From: a virus
Length of the DNA: 35,720 nucleotides
Direction: 5' to 3' (one strand)
Virus record (IMG/VR): IMGVR_UViG_3300048837_001136
Span: 1 to 35,720 of that record
Of this stretch, positions 9,548-16,641 are shown piece by piece. Both the position numbers and the translations under genes were made by a program. The notes beneath the pieces were generated by a model. The model did not search any database. It saw nothing but the letters and a program-made list of their open reading frames with translations, and had not been told where the DNA came from. Position 1 is the stretch's first letter. Every line of letters starts with the position of its first letter.

Positions 9548-11182
9548 ATGACTAAAGATTTAAACGGACTTTTTGTTACAAAGCGGAATGGAAGCAAAGA
9601 ACTTTTTGATTTGGAAAAAATCCATACCATAGTAGAAAGAGCATGCATGGGAATTACTGGAGTATCTGTTTCCGATATTGAAATGAAAACACATTTAAAT
9701 TTCTATCAAAACATTTCTACAGCAGAGATAACAGAGGCATTGGTCAAATCATCCGCAGATTTGATCTCTGAAACATCGCCTAATTATCAGTATGTTGCGG
9801 CAAATTTACTTAATTATAATTTAAGAAAGGATGTATGGGGAAGCTCAGAACCTATTCACATTTATGATCATGTAGTTAAAATGGTGGAATTGGGATTCTA
9901 TACGCAAGAATTATTAGAAGCCTATTCAAAGGATGATTGGAATGTATTAAATCACTACATCGACCATGATAGGGACTTTAAATTCGCATATGTTGGCTTA
10001 CGTGAATATATTGACAAATATTGTGTTAGAGACAGATCTCTTAAAGATATTAAACCGCTTGAAACTCCACAAATAACTTATATGCTAATTGCTGCGACAA
10101 CATGCATGCAAGAAAAAAATATGAAGAAAATCAAGAGCTTGTATAATGATTTCTCTCAGTGGAACATTAGTCTACCTACTCCGATTATGGCAGGCTTGCG
10201 AACACCCACAAAGCAGTTTTCCAGTTGCACCGTTATATCTGTTGGTGACTCCCTTGATTCTTTAATTGCCGGATCTGGCGCGATTGTTAAATATGTTGCT
10301 AAAAAGGCTGGAATAGGATTAGATGCAACACGAATACGCGCCGAAGGATCGCCAGTAGGAAAGGAAAAGGGTATTAAGCATACCGGAGTTGTGCCATTTT
10401 TACGCATGTATGAAGGCGCGCTTAAATCTTGTTCACAGGGCGGCGTCCGTGGCGGATCAATGACCGTTCATTTACTTTTATGGCATAAAGAAATAGAAGA
10501 TCTTTTAGTCTTGAAAAATAATAAAGGAACTCCCGACTCCAGAGTGCGAAAGATGGATTATAGTATAGAAATCAATAATTATCTATACAATAGATTCATA
10601 CAAAAAAAGCCAATAACATTATTTTCTCCAAATCAAGTACCGGACTTATACGATGCTTTTTATTCGGATTCCGATAAGTTCGCCGAATTATATGAAAAAT
10701 ATGAGAAGGATGATTCCTTATTTAAGAAAACTGTAGACTCGGTACAATTGTTTACCGCACTTATGACAGAAAGAAAAGAAACTGGCCGCATTTATATTTT
10801 TAATACGGAAAATGCCAATAAATTCAAGCCATTTAAAGTTCCAGTAACAACTAGTAATTTATGCTTGGATGGGCAAACTATAGTTACTGTAACTATAGAT
10901 AACTCTAGTCCAGTAGACATAACTATGGAGGAAGTTAATGATTTATTTAATCATGGCAAGCAACTTTCAGTATTATCGAAAAACATACATACTGGAGAAA
11001 TAGTATTTTCTTCAATTCAAAATTCAGCACTTACAAATCCTAGTGCTGATGTTATAAAAATAACTGATGAAAAGTCTGGTAAAAGTATTATTTGCACACC
11101 AGAACATAAAGTGTTCACCGTAAATAGAGGATATGTGGAAGCTGCAAAATTAATGCAAGACGATATTTTGGATATACAATGA
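9548..11182 (+). CDS. nrdA: Ribonucleotide reductase large subunit, N-terminal part fused to N-intein
   Basis: This 544-residue gene product is the first half of a class Ia large subunit. Residues 1-438 are NrdA: ATP-cone start (VTKRNGSKELFDLEKIHTIV, about 10-29), SLPTPIMAGLRTPTKQFSSC (208-227) with the redox Cys, substrate-binding loops GGVRGGSMTVHL, and the end VPVTTSNL. At residue 439 the sequence switches to an intein: CLDGQTIVTVTID (block A) and ITDEKSGKSIICTPEHKVFT with the block B T-x-x-H, then it stops after DDILDIQ. Asn437 and the following cysteine match the E. coli active-site N437-L-C439 in position. The half has no catalytic cysteine of its own unless spliced to the product of 11962-13077. 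Ribosome site: AGAAGAGGAAAAA. The pair is the reductase of this phage, making dNDPs. Confidence 0.95.
   Translation: MTKDLNGLFVTKRNGSKELFDLEKIHTIVERACMGITGVSVSDIEMKTHLNFYQNISTAEITEALVKSSADLISETSPNYQYVAANLLNYNLRKDVWGSSEPIHIYDHVVKMVELGFYTQELLEAYSKDDWNVLNHYIDHDRDFKFAYVGLREYIDKYCVRDRSLKDIKPLETPQITYMLIAATTCMQEKNMKKIKSLYNDFSQWNISLPTPIMAGLRTPTKQFSSCTVISVGDSLDSLIAGSGAIVKYVAKKAGIGLDATRIRAEGSPVGKEKGIKHTGVVPFLRMYEGALKSCSQGGVRGGSMTVHLLLWHKEIEDLLVLKNNKGTPDSRVRKMDYSIEINNYLYNRFIQKKPITLFSPNQVPDLYDAFYSDSDKFAELYEKYEKDDSLFKKTVDSVQLFTALMTERKETGRIYIFNTENANKFKPFKVPVTTSNLCLDGQTIVTVTIDNSSPVDITMEEVNDLFNHGKQLSVLSKNIHTGEIVFSSIQNSALTNPSADVIKITDEKSGKSIICTPEHKVFTVNRGYVEAAKLMQDDILDIQ
10862..11179 (+). mobile_element. Split intein, N-terminal half (106 residues)
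   Basis: It starts with Cys (codon 10862-10864) directly after SNL of NrdA and runs to the stop. Block A is CLDGQTIVTV and block B contains CTPEHKVFTVNRGYV with the Thr and His expected of a self-splicing intein. The sequence is similar, as I remember it, to the metagenomic split intein NrdA-2. It contains a 21-bp near-perfect palindrome at 10878-10898. Confidence 0.93.
10878..10898. repeat. 21-bp palindrome in the N-intein coding sequence
   Basis: CTATAGTTAC, a central T, then the exact reverse complement. As RNA it would form a 9-bp stem with a 3-nt loop. It starts 16 nt after the splice junction codon. Confidence 0.85.
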
Positions 11183-11183
11183 A

Positions 11184-11969
11184 ATGTTGGTAAAAAAATT
11201 TCATTATAATAAATATAGAAATAATTTGAGAAATTTTTCTATGGACAAAATCTATAAAGTTTATAAAATAACTAACAATATAAACAAAAATGTATATTTT
11301 GGTTATACATCCAAGTCCGTTATAGAAAGGTTTAAAAAACATGCACTAAATGCTGCACATGGAATTGATTCGTATCTATACAGAGCTATAAGAAAACATG
11401 GCATAACTAATTTTTCATGTATTCAGCTAAAGTCATTCACCAACAAGAAAGAAGCATTAGAATGTGAGAAAAAACTTATAATGGAATATTCCGATACTAA
11501 TACTTTATATAATATATCTTCAGGTGGTACTGGAGGGTTTGTAGTTCCAAAAGACAAAATGAATAAGTGGAAAGAGAGTATCAAGGTTAGAACACAACAT
11601 TCGGATAATCCAAATTTTTCCGGGTTCTCAGATCAAGAACTAGTAGACATAGCATGCGAATATTTTAAATCTATTGGATACATCGCAGGTAGCAAAGTAT
11701 GGGCAAGATTTGCTAAAGAGAATGGATACCCGCAAACTTTCTCTAAAAATCGTTTTGGTGGAAAGTATGATAATTTCGCAAAACGAGTTCAAGAAAAAAC
11801 TAATCTAACATACGCCAAACATCGAAAAAGTGAAGACCATAAACAAAAGCTCAGAGAATGCAGTAAATCAAAGGCATGGGTCACCGATGGTAGTATTAGC
11901 AAATATATAAACAAAAATGAATTAGATTTATACATTAAAAAAGGATTTAGAAGAGGCAGACATGCTTAA
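11184..11969 (+). CDS. GIY-YIG homing endonuclease between the intein halves
   Basis: The protein has 261 residues from this ATG. The ATG at 11241 (242 residues) fits the domain border better and may be the real start. The N-terminal domain has YKVYKITN, VYFGYTSKSVIERFKKH and a conserved Glu in KKEALECEKKLIMEY: the GIY-YIG nuclease core, with the first motif degenerate (KVY). The C-terminal part carries DNA-binding modules, ending in KAWVTDGSISKYINKNELDL and GFRRGR, a typical phage homing-endonuclease tail. It starts 1 nt after the stop of the N-intein and overlaps the C-intein gene by 8 nt. The ribosome site is weak compared with its neighbours, as is common for homing endonucleases. It presumably cuts intein-free nrdA and spreads the whole insert. 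Confidence 0.88.
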   Translation: MLVKKFHYNKYRNNLRNFSMDKIYKVYKITNNINKNVYFGYTSKSVIERFKKHALNAAHGIDSYLYRAIRKHGITNFSCIQLKSFTNKKEALECEKKLIMEYSDTNTLYNISSGGTGGFVVPKDKMNKWKESIKVRTQHSDNPNFSGFSDQELVDIACEYFKSIGYIAGSKVWARFAKENGYPQTFSKNRFGGKYDNFAKRVQEKTNLTYAKHRKSEDHKQKLRECSKSKAWVTDGSISKYINKNELDLYIKKGFRRGRHA

Positions 11970-12060
11970 AATAGAAAAAATTACAAATAAACATGAAGTA
12001 TATGATATAACCGTTAGCATAACAAATAATTTTTATGCTAACGGAATTCTAGTGCATAAT
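11962..12060 (+). mobile_element. Split intein, C-terminal half (33 residues)
   Basis: Residues 1-33 of the second nrdA gene form blocks F and G: VYDITVSITNNFYANGILVH then Asn33. The next residue, Cys34, begins the C-extein (CQEILLP). Penultimate His and terminal Asn are present, so trans-splicing chemistry looks intact. A perfect 12-bp inverted repeat (12011-12044) lies inside it. Confidence 0.93.
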
Positions 12061-13077
12061 TGCCAAGAAATCCTCTTGCCAACCACGCCACTTATGAGTC
12101 TTGAAGATGACCAAAATTTAATTTCTTTATGTACATTACTTGCAATCAATTTAGGTAATATAAGAAATTTTGATGAGCTTGAATCTCAATGCAAAAATGC
12201 AGTTCTCGCTCTAGATAATTTATTAGATTATCAAGACTATATGGTTCCTGCAGCAAAAACTGCAACTGCATTATATAGGCCATTAGGGATAGGTGTTATA
12301 AATCTTGCATACTATCTTGCCAAAAACGGAGTGGATTATCAATCTCCAGAAGGTTGGAAATTGATTGATGAAACAATGGAAGCAATTAATTATTATTGTA
12401 TCAAAGCCTCCATTGAACTTGCTGCAGAAAGAGGACCATGTGCTGGATATAAAAATACTAAATGGGCACAAGGTCTTTTACCTATCGATTACTATAAACC
12501 AACGATTGATGAAATAGTAAAATTTAACCCTAAGCAAAACTGGGAATGGTTGCGAGAGATGCTAAAAATTCATGGCATAAGAAATGCTACTTTAACAGCT
12601 TTCATGCCAGCAGAATCCAGTGCAAAAATTTCTAACGCAACAAGCGGAGTAGACCCTATCCGCGCTCTTGTTACTATTAAGAAAAATAAAACTAGTATAA
12701 CAAAACAGGTTGTTCCGGAAATTAACAGATTAAAAAATAAATTTGATCAACTTTGGGAAATGCAGTCCATGGACGGGATGATTAAATCTATGGCAATAAT
12801 TAATAGATTGTGCTCTCAATCTATATCTACCAACTTAAGCTATAATCCAGCACATTATCCTAATGGGGAAATTCCTCAATCGGTAATGATTAAAGATTTA
12901 CTTAAAGCGAACTACTATGGCCTACCAACTTTATATTATCACAATACACGTGACGGTAGAGAAGACGCGATAGTAGAAGATGCCCCAAATACTCAACCAA
13001 CTAATGAAAGTGTTGCAGAAAACTCACAACCAGAGTATAATGTAGAAGAAGATACATGTTCTTCTTGTACTATATAG
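11962..13077 (+). CDS. nrdA: Ribonucleotide reductase large subunit, C-terminal part fused to C-intein
   Basis: This 371-residue product has a 33-residue C-intein followed by the C-terminal 338 residues of NrdA. After splicing the junction reads SNL-CQEILLPTTP, restoring the catalytic Asn-x-Cys-x-Glu; the first C-extein residue is therefore also the thiyl-radical cysteine. Downstream are ATLTAFMPAESSAKISNATS (the phosphate-binding region) and a C-terminal redox pair in EEDTCSSCTI (C366, C369) for reduction by thioredoxin or glutaredoxin. Spliced NrdA would be 776 residues, against 761 in E. coli. It has a strong ribosome site (AGAAGAGG), so it is translated independently. Its start lies inside the end of the endonuclease gene. 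Confidence 0.95.
   Translation: MLKIEKITNKHEVYDITVSITNNFYANGILVHNCQEILLPTTPLMSLEDDQNLISLCTLLAINLGNIRNFDELESQCKNAVLALDNLLDYQDYMVPAAKTATALYRPLGIGVINLAYYLAKNGVDYQSPEGWKLIDETMEAINYYCIKASIELAAERGPCAGYKNTKWAQGLLPIDYYKPTIDEIVKFNPKQNWEWLREMLKIHGIRNATLTAFMPAESSAKISNATSGVDPIRALVTIKKNKTSITKQVVPEINRLKNKFDQLWEMQSMDGMIKSMAIINRLCSQSISTNLSYNPAHYPNGEIPQSVMIKDLLKANYYGLPTLYYHNTRDGREDAIVEDAPNTQPTNESVAENSQPEYNVEEDTCSSCTI
12011..12044. repeat. 12-bp perfect inverted repeat in the C-intein
   Basis: CCGTTAGCATAA at 12011-12022 pairs with 12033-12044 across a 10-nt loop. It is wholly coding (residues 17-28 of the gene product). No T-run follows, so it is not a normal terminator. Confidence 0.85.
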
Positions 13078-13085
13078 GATAAAAT

Positions 13086-13748
13086 ATGAGATTGGTGGCT
13101 ATTTCTGACACTCATTTTAATATGAGCGAAGAGCAAATTAAAGAATTAATTCCGGATGGGGATGTCTTAGTTCATGCGGGAGATCTTATGTATGAAGGCA
13201 CTCCCATGGAATGGAAAGAGCGTCTAGATTTTTTAGGATCTTTGCCCCATAAAATAAAAATTTATGTTCCCGGTAACCATGACTATCATCCGGCAGTGTA
13301 TACTGGACCAGCAGTAGAAAATCTTTTACATAGAGGAATTAAGCCTTTGTTTGGTGCAAAATATACTACAACCTTACCTAATGGAATGAAAATTTTAGGA
13401 TTGCCATTTGTGACGAATCTTGTCGGATGGGCATTTAATTCCAGCGAGCATCTTTTGGAAGAATTCTTATTCAATAAGTATTATCATAATCATGTGGATA
13501 TAATTGTATCACATAGCCCTCCTCACGGAATATTAGATAAACTAAATGATGGTAAAAACACTTCGGTTGGCATACATGCGTATACTGATTTCTTCCATAA
13601 GAAAGTAATTAAACCTAAGCACTGGATATGCGGACATATACACGAAAGCTATGGGACTGCTGAAATGGATGGATGCAAGTTTTACAATGTAGCTATGTGC
13701 AATGAAGATTACTTACAGACTAACAAAGGAATGGTAATAGATATATGA
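13086..13748 (+). CDS. Metallophosphoesterase (calcineurin-like)
   Basis: The protein has 220 residues. Metal ligands follow the family order: D8 and H10 (AISDTHFN), D33 (HAGDL), N64-H65 (PGNHDYH), H143 (SHSPPHG), and H184 and H186 (CGHIHES). It is close in size and motif spacing to the small MJ0936/UPF0046-like phosphoesterases. The substrate is unknown; nucleotide or nucleic-acid phosphate ends are plausible. It lies between the nrdA C-half and nrdB, has an AGGAT ribosome site, and overlaps nrdB by 4 nt, so it is expressed with the reductase. A second phosphoesterase is at 26173. Confidence 0.88.
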   Translation: MRLVAISDTHFNMSEEQIKELIPDGDVLVHAGDLMYEGTPMEWKERLDFLGSLPHKIKIYVPGNHDYHPAVYTGPAVENLLHRGIKPLFGAKYTTTLPNGMKILGLPFVTNLVGWAFNSSEHLLEEFLFNKYYHNHVDIIVSHSPPHGILDKLNDGKNTSVGIHAYTDFFHKKVIKPKHWICGHIHESYGTAEMDGCKFYNVAMCNEDYLQTNKGMVIDI

Positions 13749-14842
13749 CAAATGAAACAGTTTTTAATACAGTACCAAATACTAAGCAAAATAGATTTAT
13801 GTTTTTTGGCGAAAAACCAAATTTGGCTCGCTATGATGAATTAGTGCATCCAGTATTCGATAAACTGACTGCTAAGCAAAAATCTTTTTTTTGGCAACCA
13901 GAAGAAATTGATTTAAACAAAGATATAAAAGATTTTAAAATTTTATCAGATGCACAAAAATCAATTTTTATCAACACGATAAGCTATCAAATAGTGCTTG
14001 ATACAATACAAGCAAGGAGTCCAGCACTGGCATTACTCCCATTTTGCACACTTCCAGAACTTGAAGCCTGTATAGAATGGTGGTGCGCAATGGAACAAAT
14101 GCATAACCATGCATATTCATATACGCTAAGAAACCTATTTCCGACGCCCGCTGTAATTTTTGATGGGGTAGTAGTGAATGATAGAATCAAAGAACGTGCA
14201 GAAAGAACCGTAAAGTATTATGATAAATTTATTAATTTGGGAAATAAGTATAGAGTTGATGAAAAATCCGTCGATATGACAGAGCTTAAGCGGGCTCTAA
14301 TTATGTGCGTTGCTTCAATTAATGCACTTGAAGGCTTAAGTTTTTATGCCTCATTTGCTTGCACATTTGCCTTTGCGGAACAGGGATTGATGGAAGGAAA
14401 CGCTAAAGAAATCTCATTAATTGCTAGAGACGAAGCGTTGCATCTGGCTATAACTCAAAATATTTTGAAGAAATGGTCGTCCGGTTCCGATGATCCTGAA
14501 ATGGCTAAACTTTATGTGGAGTGCTTGCCTGAAATCGAACAACTATATTTAAATATTGTAAAACAAGAAAAGGAATGGTGTGAATATTTGTTTAAAGACG
14601 GCTCAATGATTGGATTGAATACTAAGATTTTATCCGAGTATGTAGAATATATGGCTGGTAAAAGAATGAAAAACTTAGGTATTAAGACATCTTTTACTAC
14701 AAAGAATCCTATTCCTTGGGTTGACAAATACTTAAATAGTAGTGATGTTCAGGATGCTCCGCAAGAAGTCGATCTTTCTTCTTATATAATAGGAGGAGTT
14801 AAAAATGATTTAAATGATACAGACTTTAGTAATTTTTTATAA
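13745..14842 (+). CDS. nrdB: Ribonucleotide reductase small subunit (class Ia)
   Basis: The protein has 365 residues. It houses the di-iron-tyrosyl radical that drives NrdA. Iron ligands and radical site are all present: D86 (LDTIQARSP), E117 and H120 (MEQMHNHAY), Tyr124 at the radical position, E196 (ALEGLSFY), and E230 and H233 (ARDEALHLAITQ). The C-terminal tail NDTDFSNFL is the acidic peptide that docks on NrdA. It is not interrupted. A large homing endonuclease gene follows after 2 nt. Co-transcribed with nrdA and the phosphoesterase. Confidence 0.97.
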   Translation: MTNETVFNTVPNTKQNRFMFFGEKPNLARYDELVHPVFDKLTAKQKSFFWQPEEIDLNKDIKDFKILSDAQKSIFINTISYQIVLDTIQARSPALALLPFCTLPELEACIEWWCAMEQMHNHAYSYTLRNLFPTPAVIFDGVVVNDRIKERAERTVKYYDKFINLGNKYRVDEKSVDMTELKRALIMCVASINALEGLSFYASFACTFAFAEQGLMEGNAKEISLIARDEALHLAITQNILKKWSSGSDDPEMAKLYVECLPEIEQLYLNIVKQEKEWCEYLFKDGSMIGLNTKILSEYVEYMAGKRMKNLGIKTSFTTKNPIPWVDKYLNSSDVQDAPQEVDLSSYIIGGVKNDLNDTDFSNFL

Positions 14843-14844
14843 CA

Positions 14845-16641
14845 ATGAATTGTAAATTTGATGAATTATTACTATGCCTTAAAAAAATAAATTATGAAGA
14901 AAATCCAAGAATTCTTCTTCTGAAAGAACATAAAGAATTAGTAAATCAAATAAAAGAAGCTACAAGTTTTTTGGATTCGTCTTTTAAAAAAATTGAATGT
15001 GCTCAACGTGTTTGGCACATTCTACACTCATCACATAACATTCAAAAATGTGCAGTTTGTAAGCAAAATTCTGTATTATGGGACAAAAGAAATAGAAGTT
15101 ACTTTAATACTTGTAGTAAAAAGTGCAGTGCAGCCGATCCTGATAGGATTAAAAAATATAAATCTACGATGCTAAAAACTTATGGCGTGGAGAATCCTTC
15201 GCATAGCGATGAAATATTACTCAAAAAAGCTGAAAATTATAAAGAGAGTTACTCGGATACTAAGAATAAAGAAATAGTTCAAAAACGATTTGATACTATT
15301 TGTGATCGATATAATGTCGATTCTATTTCGGACTTTTATAATTCTGAACAAAGGATTGCTAAAATAAAGCAAACATGTAAACAAAAATATGGAGTAGAAA
15401 CATATTTATTGCACCCGGAAATCGACAAAATATTTAAAATTAAATATGGAGTAGATAAAATTAATTTTATTCAACAAAAAGCCAAAGAATCTATTATAGA
15501 AAAATATAGCACGGATAATATATTTCTGCTCGATCATATTAAAGAGATACGAATTAAAAATATTAGAAAAAAAGAGTTTAATAAAAGATTAAAAAACAAC
15601 GAGTTTGCATATCCTCTTTTTAGTGAGGATACGTATTCTGGAATTTCGTCAAAGTCTAAAACATTATGGAAATGCAAAAATTGCTTAAATGACTTTACGG
15701 ATATTTTACACAGTTCGCGAACACTCCCACTATGTCCCTATTGTACAAAAAAAGGAATTTCTAACTTCGAAAAAGAAGTTAGAAATTTTGTAATTGAGTT
15801 ACTAGAAGGTACTACGAACATAAGTTTTAATGATAGAAGTATTTTGAACGGAAAAGAAATTGATATTCTCGTAGATAATAAAATAGGAATAGAATTAAAT
15901 GGGGCGTATTGGCATTCTGAGTTAGCTGGAAAGAGAGATAAAAATTATCACTATAATAAAACTAGATTGGCGGCTTATAAAAATATAGACCTTTTTCATA
16001 TATGGGATTTTGAATGGAATAATAAAAAGGAAATATGTAAATCTTATCTATCTTCCATGTTCGGTAAAAATGAAAAAATTTTTGCAAGGAAATGCAAAAT
16101 AATTAAAATTACAAAATCTGAAGCTGCCAATTTTTTTACCAACACACATTTTCAAGGATTCAATAAATCGTTGAACACAGAAAACTTTGGATTGGTTTTT
16201 AATGATGAATTAGCTGCTTGCATTAGTTTTACAAAATCTAGATTTGATAGTAACTCTCAAGTTGAAATATATCGATTTAGCAACAAGTTATACTCAAATG
16301 TAATTGGTGGTTTCGGTAAGCTGCTTAAATATTACATAGATAAGCAAAATCCAGAATCTATCGTATCGTATTGCGATTTGTCAAAATTTAAAGGAACAAT
16401 TTATAAAAAATTTGGGATGCAGCACTCACATAATTCATCTCCAAATTATTTTTACACACAAAATTACATTCGTTTTTATTCAAGGCATAAATTTCAAAAA
16501 CACAAATTAAAGAACAATTTATTAAATTTTTGTGAAACAATGACAGAATGGGAAAACATGATGCAAAATGGATTTGATAGAATATGGGATTGCGGTAATG
16601 CCGTATTTGAATATAAATATAATAAAAAGGATTCTTTATGA
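14845..16641 (+). CDS. Large free-standing homing endonuclease, Vsr-like EDxHD type
   Basis: The protein has 598 residues. The N-terminal half holds a zinc cluster (C69, C72, C90, C94) and repeated modules of the type KTYGVENPSHSDEI, KQKYGVETYLLHPEI, KYGVDKINFIQQ and KYSTDNIFLLDHI, typical DNA-recognition repeats of phage homing enzymes. A second zinc-ribbon is C277, C280, C297, C300. The nuclease core is about 332-392: KEIDILVDNKIGIELNGAYW then HS, and LFHIWDFEW, giving the Glu/Asp/His/Asp arrangement of the Vsr-like EDxHD enzymes known from split-intein 'fractured genes'. The C-terminal part (about 410-598) is another conserved domain. It starts 2 nt after nrdB with no ribosome site. Its last codons contain a late promoter for the next gene. 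Confidence 0.85.
   Translation: MNCKFDELLLCLKKINYEENPRILLLKEHKELVNQIKEATSFLDSSFKKIECAQRVWHILHSSHNIQKCAVCKQNSVLWDKRNRSYFNTCSKKCSAADPDRIKKYKSTMLKTYGVENPSHSDEILLKKAENYKESYSDTKNKEIVQKRFDTICDRYNVDSISDFYNSEQRIAKIKQTCKQKYGVETYLLHPEIDKIFKIKYGVDKINFIQQKAKESIIEKYSTDNIFLLDHIKEIRIKNIRKKEFNKRLKNNEFAYPLFSEDTYSGISSKSKTLWKCKNCLNDFTDILHSSRTLPLCPYCTKKGISNFEKEVRNFVIELLEGTTNISFNDRSILNGKEIDILVDNKIGIELNGAYWHSELAGKRDKNYHYNKTRLAAYKNIDLFHIWDFEWNNKKEICKSYLSSMFGKNEKIFARKCKIIKITKSEAANFFTNTHFQGFNKSLNTENFGLVFNDELAACISFTKSRFDSNSQVEIYRFSNKLYSNVIGGFGKLLKYYIDKQNPESIVSYCDLSKFKGTIYKKFGMQHSHNSSPNYFYTQNYIRFYSRHKFQKHKLKNNLLNFCETMTEWENMMQNGFDRIWDCGNAVFEYKYNKKDSL
15756..15787. repeat. 13-bp perfect inverted repeat in the EDxHD endonuclease gene
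   Basis: AATTTCTAACTTC at 15756-15768 pairs with 15775-15787 across a 6-nt loop of mostly A. It lies in coding sequence just before the nuclease core. Only a weak T-run follows. Confidence 0.85.
16612..16619 (+). promoter_or_regulatory. Late promoter TATAAATA inside the end of the endonuclease gene
   Basis: An exact T4 late octamer lies 18 nt before the ATG at 16638. The inferred transcript would start about 16625 and carry AAGGAT as its ribosome site. The same bases code for the last residues of the endonuclease. Confidence 0.55.

What the first reader, a model, noticed from the sequence alone, without database searches (positions are those of the whole stretch)
9548..13077. nrdA fractured by a split intein, with the splice junction at the catalytic radical cysteine
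The large reductase subunit is coded by two separate genes. The first ends in an N-intein (Cys439 to residue 544), the second begins with a 33-residue C-intein ending in Asn. Joining them gives SNL-CQEILLP, so the +1 Cys needed for trans-splicing is the same residue as the thiyl-radical Cys (E. coli C439). Neither gene product can be an active reductase alone; activity depends on trans-splicing. Related metagenomic split inteins (NrdA-2 type) and 'fractured genes' have been described; Aeromonas phage Aeh1 has a split nrdA without an intein. Here the complete locus is seen in phage context with nrdB.
Basis: partly seen in the sequence, partly recalled or inferred. Interest (0 to 1): 0.85.

Follow-up and report, generated by a model that had tools for sequence, protein, structure and literature searches.

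The report
Phage nrdA split by mobile intein cassette
A phage gene for making DNA building blocks is broken in two by a split self-splicing intein with a DNA-cutting homing gene between the halves; this is a known arrangement, but related loci show the whole package jumping between phages and a targeting tail that keeps to one site while the cutting part is swapped.

Summary
nrdA is coded by two genes: 9548-11182 (438 aa of NrdA plus a 106-aa IntN) and 11962-13077 (33-aa IntC plus 338 aa of NrdA). The predicted 776-aa product restores SNL-CQE, so the +1 Cys is E. coli C439.

The 779-nt gap holds a free-standing GIY-YIG homing endonuclease gene (best start 11241, end 11969). This is the published 'fractured gene' arrangement, and at least 65 distinct split inteins of this type turned up at this nrdA site. 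It is therefore a new member of a known kind.

New evidence from relatives:
(1) IntN+endonuclease+IntC moves as one cassette: 1202 bp identical in two phages whose nrdA flanks are only 84% and 71% identical.
(2) The endonuclease's C-terminal tail follows this nrdA site (80/80 viral loci, 23/23 phage records). It is joined to GIY-YIG, free-standing HNH, or an HNH inside a cis-intein. One exception: a glycosyltransferase locus.
(3) A T4-type late-promoter motif in an RBS-masking hairpin precedes the endonuclease in nearly all loci; in the window it is weak.

Splicing and cleavage are inferred, not shown.

The parts
9548..10861 (+). nrdA N-extein (438 aa: ATP cone, all-alpha domain, first part of the barrel, ending ...TTSNL)
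   Evidence: Pfam/NCBIfam; E. coli NrdA alignment to C439
10862..11182 (+). IntN, 106 aa, Cys1 to stop TGA; block A CLDGQT, block B CTPEH
   Evidence: TIGR01445 E 6.8e-7; NrdJ-1 split intein 8ubs E 3.2e-15; relatives
11185..11247 (+). predicted RNA hairpin (MFE -10.9 kcal/mol, weak) with AATAAATA (11208-11215) in its loop and the 3' arm over the endonuclease start codon: putative late promoter plus RBS-masking hairpin
   Evidence: z -1.4; family-wide pattern 41/43 with ATAAATA, median z -5.8
11241..11969 (+). free-standing GIY-YIG homing endonuclease, 242 aa (ORF open from 11184; start 11241 preferred because relatives start there and the hairpin abuts it)
   Evidence: PF01541 E 1.2e-8; I-TevI catalytic domain by sequence and fold, E 2e-4
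11538..11966 (+). C-terminal tail of the endonuclease (aa 100-242, motif FSKNRFGG): putative target-recognition module tied to the nrdA C439 site
11951..11956 (+). AAGAGG Shine-Dalgarno-like sequence 5 nt before the IntC-nrdA start; that start overlaps the endonuclease stop
   Evidence: sequence
11962..12060 (+). IntC, 33 aa, ending HN
   Evidence: TIGR01443 E 3.1e-9, Intein_splicing
12061..13077 (+). nrdA C-extein (338 aa), starting with Cys +1 = E. coli C439, with E441, the second redox Cys, the YY motif and the C-terminal CSSC
   Evidence: Pfam E 7e-60; E. coli alignment
13745..14842 (+). nrdB (class Ia small subunit)
   Evidence: NF006576 E 1.8e-130 above cut-off

Best explanation
This is a fractured nrdA: a mobile cassette made of IntN, a free-standing GIY-YIG homing endonuclease gene and IntC sits exactly at the codon of the radical cysteine C439 in a phage class Ia ribonucleotide reductase. 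The two NrdA pieces are translated separately, the intein halves associate, and trans-splicing restores an uninterrupted 776-aa NrdA with C439 as the +1 nucleophile (inferred from intact splicing motifs). The endonuclease is probably held silent on early nrdA messages by a hairpin and made late from a T4-type late promoter in the hairpin loop (inferred; weak in the window itself, strong in relatives). Its C-terminal tail recognises the unoccupied nrdA site in co-infecting phages, the GIY-YIG head cuts it, and repair copies the whole cassette across (inferred; recent transfer of whole cassettes is shown by sequence in relatives).
For: Intein terminal models and NrdA halves exactly abut. NrdJ-1 split intein match. 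Same layout in a diverged relative (L001), in Klebsiella phage KP13-7 with a homologous GIY-YIG, and in Yersinia phage TG1 with an HNH. Natural empty site TTSNLCQEITLP in a relative with matching neighbours (L002). I-TevI-like catalytic domain by sequence and fold. Tail-only search returned 80/80 loci at nrdA, 67 with both intein halves in view, and 23/23 phage records inside or between nrdA pieces. Cassette identical over 1202 bp, or about 99% over 1189 bp, between nrdA genes with synonymous difference 0.5-0.64; no opposite case among 561 pairs. Endonuclease dN/dS 0.03-0.26 in relatives. ATAAATA in 41/43 upstream regions against 3.7 expected. No group I or II intron found.
Against: No splicing, cleavage or homing was measured. 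The window's own cassette is too diverged from its nearest relative (synonymous sites near saturation) to show recent transfer itself. Its hairpin is weak (z -1.4) and its promoter motif deviates (AATAAATA). Motif density across the window does not exceed chance, so use of a T4-type late promoter by this phage is unproven.
Confidence: 0.88

Rival explanations
1. Aeh1-like case: an endonuclease gene broke nrdA and the two halves work as separate, unspliced polypeptides.
For: Precedent in Aeromonas phage Aeh1 (PMC3653736). The gap endonuclease here is also free-standing.
Against: Both pieces carry complete intein termini with C1, TxxH and HN|C, and the break falls at the catalytic Cys, so unspliced halves would carry 106 and 33 extra residues at the active site. 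Intein ends are conserved across relatives; all tabulated C-junctions read HN|C.
Confidence: 0.05
2. The gap is removed from RNA by a self-splicing intron, with the endonuclease as an intron gene.
For: TIGR01453 'group I intron endonuclease' resembles the gap ORF, below its cut-off; phage RNR genes often carry group I introns (PMC3653736).
Against: No Rfam intron match at gathering or relaxed threshold. IntN ends in a stop codon, IntC has its own start and SD, and the junctions encode intein splice motifs.
Confidence: 0.02
3. Remnant: the intein or the endonuclease is decaying and nrdA is no longer used by the phage.
For: Relatives with no endonuclease (L034) or only a tail fragment (L111) show that decay happens.
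Against: All three ORFs are intact. Window versus L001 dN/dS is 0.09-0.42 in every segment, though synonymous sites are near saturation. nrdB and the RNR catalytic residues are intact.
Confidence: 0.05

Closest known systems
'Fractured genes' of Dassa et al. 2009 (NAR 37:2560; text not held, cited through PMC3653736 and PMC7090010), including NrdA-2
   Same: Conserved phage enzyme gene broken by a split intein with a free-standing endonuclease gene between (my recollection of the abstract); seven nrdA cases in ocean metagenomes (PMC3653736)
   Different: Here a GIY-YIG endonuclease, on a 35.7 kb phage contig with nrdB; the Vsr-like endonuclease described by Dassa (recalled) is not the one in the gap, although a large endonuclease lies after nrdB
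AceL NrdHF split class 3 intein (PMC7891396)
   Same: Phage-like contig, fractured RNR gene, intervening GIY-YIG putative homing endonuclease
   Different: Small subunit (nrdHF), class 3 intein with Ala1; here large subunit and an intein with Cys1
Yersinia phage TG1 nrdA (L008)
   Same: Same insertion register SNL|C, split intein, endonuclease in the gap
   Different: HNH endonuclease instead of GIY-YIG
Dickeya phage LIMEstone1 / Salmonella phage pertopsoe nrdA intein (L223, L224)
   Same: Same site and same endonuclease tail module
   Different: Cis-intein in one ORF with an embedded HNH-like region
Aeromonas phage Aeh1 nrdA/mobE and the T4 hairpin-controlled endonucleases (PMC2988022)
   Same: Endonuclease breaking nrdA; late promoter plus RBS-masking hairpin control
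   Different: Aeh1 has no intein; the NrdA pieces work unspliced

Membership tests
Fractured gene (split intein plus free-standing endonuclease) | Conserved enzyme gene broken into two ORFs at an intein site | tested here: met
Fractured gene (split intein plus free-standing endonuclease) | IntN and IntC with splicing motifs at the facing ends | tested here: met
   TIGR01445, TIGR01443, Intein_splicing; alignments
Fractured gene (split intein plus free-standing endonuclease) | Endonuclease gene with its own start between the halves | tested here: met
   PF01541; ORF 11241-11969
Fractured gene (split intein plus free-standing endonuclease) | Trans-splicing activity | not testable with these tools
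   needs expression and mass spectrometry
GIY-YIG homing endonuclease | GIY-YIG catalytic fold and motif residues | tested here: met
   Y8, Y19, G21, R30, H34, E76 and N91 invariant in 19 sequences; I-TevI fold E 2e-4
GIY-YIG homing endonuclease | Mobility of the element into empty alleles | tested here: inconclusive
   shown by sequence for relatives, not for the window's own cassette; no cleavage assay
Class Ia NrdA | C439, E441, redox cysteines, YY motif, C-terminal Cys pair in the predicted spliced product | tested here: met
   E. coli alignments and sequence
T4-type late-promoter/hairpin control of the endonuclease | TATAAATA in the loop of a hairpin covering the RBS or start | tested here: inconclusive
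   family 37/43 TATAAATA with hairpins; the window has AATAAATA and z -1.4
Aeh1-type unspliced split NrdA | Break without intein | tested here: not met
   intein termini present

The most novel reading that the evidence does not exclude
The unit that owns this nrdA site is not the intein or the nuclease but a roughly 100-140-residue targeting tail. The same tail has been joined to a GIY-YIG head, a free-standing HNH head and an HNH inside a cis-intein, so nuclease type and splicing format (cis or split) are exchanged around a fixed target specificity.
Probability: 0.6. Interest if true: 0.6.

Novelty: new member of a known kind. Interest (0 to 1): 0.45.

Why it matters
It puts a complete fractured nrdA in genomic context and shows that a fractured gene is a mobile unit. 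Sequence comparison of relatives catches whole split-intein/endonuclease cassettes that have recently crossed between distantly related nrdA genes. The shared tail on different nucleases at one codon gives a testable route for how homing endonucleases take over, and possibly split, inteins. The intermediates are all present in sequence data: empty site, cis mini-intein, cis-intein with HNH, split with GIY-YIG or HNH, split with a decayed endonuclease, split with none. These loci also supply many new natural split inteins for protein engineering.

Tried and rejected
Group I/II intron in the gap: no Rfam match at gathering score or relaxed threshold; the only relaxed hits were implausible miRNA/snoRNA matches. 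Longer endonuclease start at 11184: the extra 19 residues are not conserved, L001 has a stop just upstream, and the hairpin abuts 11241. Assembly error: rejected by an identical second contig and a diverged relative. Tail as a generic DNA-binding module: rejected as a general account, since 80/80 viral loci and 23/23 phage records lie at nrdA; L176 (glycosyltransferase) is one exception, so it is not absolute. PDB fold match for the tail: only the GIY-YIG head matched. Window-wide enrichment of TATAAATA: none (9 against 10.2 expected). Recent transfer of the window's own cassette: cannot be tested, since synonymous sites are near saturation against the nearest relative. The Dassa 2009 text was not held, so its list of endonuclease types could not be checked.

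Full report
WHAT IS THERE. The window is a whole 35,720-bp virus record from IMG/VR, apparently a fragment. ORF 9548-11182 (544 aa) is NrdA residues 1-438 followed by a 106-residue IntN that begins with Cys439. ORF 11962-13077 (371 aa) is a 33-residue IntC ending in His-Asn followed by 338 residues of NrdA. Pfam and NCBIfam place the NrdA barrel and the intein N- and C-terminal splicing regions exactly there. Alignments to E. coli NrdA stop at C439 from the left and start at C439 from the right. The predicted spliced protein has 776 residues and keeps C439-x-E441, both redox cysteines, the YY pair and the C-terminal Cys pair. nrdB follows at 13745-14842.

The gap of 779 nt between the IntN stop and the IntC start is filled by an ORF (11184-11969) with a GIY-YIG catalytic domain (E 1.2e-8 for the 242-aa form; PHROG 'homing endonuclease' E 1.7e-21). 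The AlphaFold2 model (mean pLDDT 84) matches the I-TevI catalytic domain (Foldseek E 2e-4). The start at 11241 is preferred: relatives begin there, and L001 has a stop a few codons upstream. The IntC ATG (11962) overlaps the end of the endonuclease and has its own AAGAGG five nucleotides upstream.

ASSEMBLY. A second contig (IMGVR_UViG_3300048591_000727) is identical to the window over 6082 bp covering the N-half, IntN, the endonuclease and the start of IntC. A diverged relative (L001) has the same three-ORF layout with a 50%-identical endonuclease. A relative with matching neighbours, L002, has an unbroken nrdA reading TTSNLCQEITLP, the natural empty site.

HOW COMMON IT IS. Searches of viral contigs with alignments of the two junction regions and of the endonuclease, followed by profile classification, found at this site: many empty alleles (123 loci); cis mini-inteins (e.g. 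L022, L024, L027, L062, L105); split inteins with an endonuclease (most of the split loci); split inteins with no room for one (L034); and one with only a tail fragment (L111). 65 distinct split IntN sequences were seen. Cultured examples are Yersinia phage TG1 (HNH in the gap), Klebsiella phage KP13-7 (GIY-YIG homologous to the window's) and Campylobacter phages. Two registers exist: SNL|C, where C439 is the +1 nucleophile (window, L001, TG1), and SNLC|C, where C439 stays in the N-extein and a Cys at position 440 is +1 (KP13-7, Campylobacter phages; the fixed C439-x-E441 spacing decides the register).

THE CASSETTE MOVES. Synonymous divergence was compared between cassette and nrdA in 561 pairs of relatives. 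In 290 pairs the cassette was below 0.6 times the extein value; the reverse never occurred. In L015 versus L265 the 1202-bp cassette is identical while the 600-bp flanks are 84% and 71% identical, with the change close to the splice junctions. L016, L230 and L241 share cassettes of about 99% identity in nrdA genes with synonymous difference 0.5-0.64. Chimeric assembly could mimic one such pair; several pairs with small differences, from different metagenomes, make it unlikely as a general account. The window's own cassette is too diverged from L001 for this test.

THE TAIL FOLLOWS THE SITE. The C-terminal tail of the window's endonuclease (aa 100-242, motif FSKNRFGG) was used alone. Against cultured phage genomes it hit 23 records, all inside or between nrdA pieces (about three independent lineages): KP13-7, and Dickeya LIMEstone-type and Salmonella phages where the same module lies in a cis-intein with an HNH-like region at the same SNL|C site. 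Against viral contigs a tail profile gave 80 kept loci (of 139 confirmed), and all 80 adjoin nrdA intein halves; 13 are cut by contig ends. The free-standing HNH endonucleases in the gap of other phages carry a related tail: BLAST E 9e-8 for the window versus L031; profile-profile probability 97.7%, E 1.8e-12, against a control with their N-terminal halves at 0.1%. The exception is L176, a split-intein glycosyltransferase whose gap GIY-YIG also has the tail. Hybrid endonucleases are known in T4 (SegF, PMC2988022), so nuclease exchange as such is not new; here the tail tracks one codon of one gene.

CONTROL REGION. Among 43 distinct IntN-to-endonuclease intergenic regions, 37 contain TATAAATA (the T4 late promoter core, established knowledge) and 41 ATAAATA (3.7 expected), in regions that fold far better than shuffles (median z -5.8). 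Stem sequences differ between families while the layout persists in most, though not all, of them. This is the control published for I-TevI, SegB and Aeh1 MobE (PMC2988022). The window has the layout in weaker form (AATAAATA at 11208-11215, hairpin 11185-11247, z -1.4).

COMPARISON AND NOVELTY. The arrangement is the fractured gene of Dassa et al. 2009 (not held; PMC3653736 reports seven nrdA cases from it). An intervening GIY-YIG endonuclease is published for the AceL NrdHF fractured gene (PMC7891396). The locus is therefore a new member of a known kind. What I did not find described in the papers I could search is the tail shared across GIY-YIG, HNH and cis-intein endonucleases at one site, and the sequence evidence for whole-cassette transfer; the search was limited to openly licensed papers.

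SHOWN AND INFERRED. Shown by sequence: gene structure, intein termini, endonuclease fold, relatives, cassette transfer in relatives, tail-site association. Inferred: trans-splicing, cleavage of the empty site, late expression.

Noticed in passing
window 14845-16641 (+): Large protein directly after nrdB matching homing endonuclease PHROG 3339 (E 8e-106) and weakly a restriction-endonuclease-like domain; looks like the Vsr-like phage endonuclease group. Yersinia TG1 has a similar-looking gene between nrdA and nrdB.
   Followed up: partly
window 13086-13748 (+): Calcineurin-like phosphoesterase gene inserted between nrdA and nrdB; L001 has a second GIY-YIG-like gene (L001 2939-3562) in that place.
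   Followed up: no
L006 (Klebsiella phage KP13-7) 3992-9522: nrdA appears broken at three places: an early HNH-like interruption, the C439 split intein with GIY-YIG, and a second apparent split intein with an HNH-like gene at the site where Campylobacter phages have a cis-intein.
   Followed up: partly
L176 4026-6927: A glycosyltransferase-like gene split by an intein with a GIY-YIG endonuclease between the halves: a fractured gene outside DNA metabolism.
   Followed up: partly
L020, L035: The same C439 site is split by related inteins in a divergent RNR large subunit, suggesting transfer between RNR subfamilies.
   Followed up: partly
L111 1812-2045: 78-codon ORF in the intein gap matching only the endonuclease tail (E 6e-20): a decaying endonuclease leaving a split intein behind.
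   Followed up: partly
L011, L013 (Campylobacter phages): Split intein in nrdA with two ORFs of unknown family in the gap instead of a recognisable endonuclease.
   Followed up: no
L009 (Xanthomonas phage XacN1) nrdA: Extra segment of about 40 residues just downstream of the empty C439 site in an otherwise unbroken NrdA.
   Followed up: no
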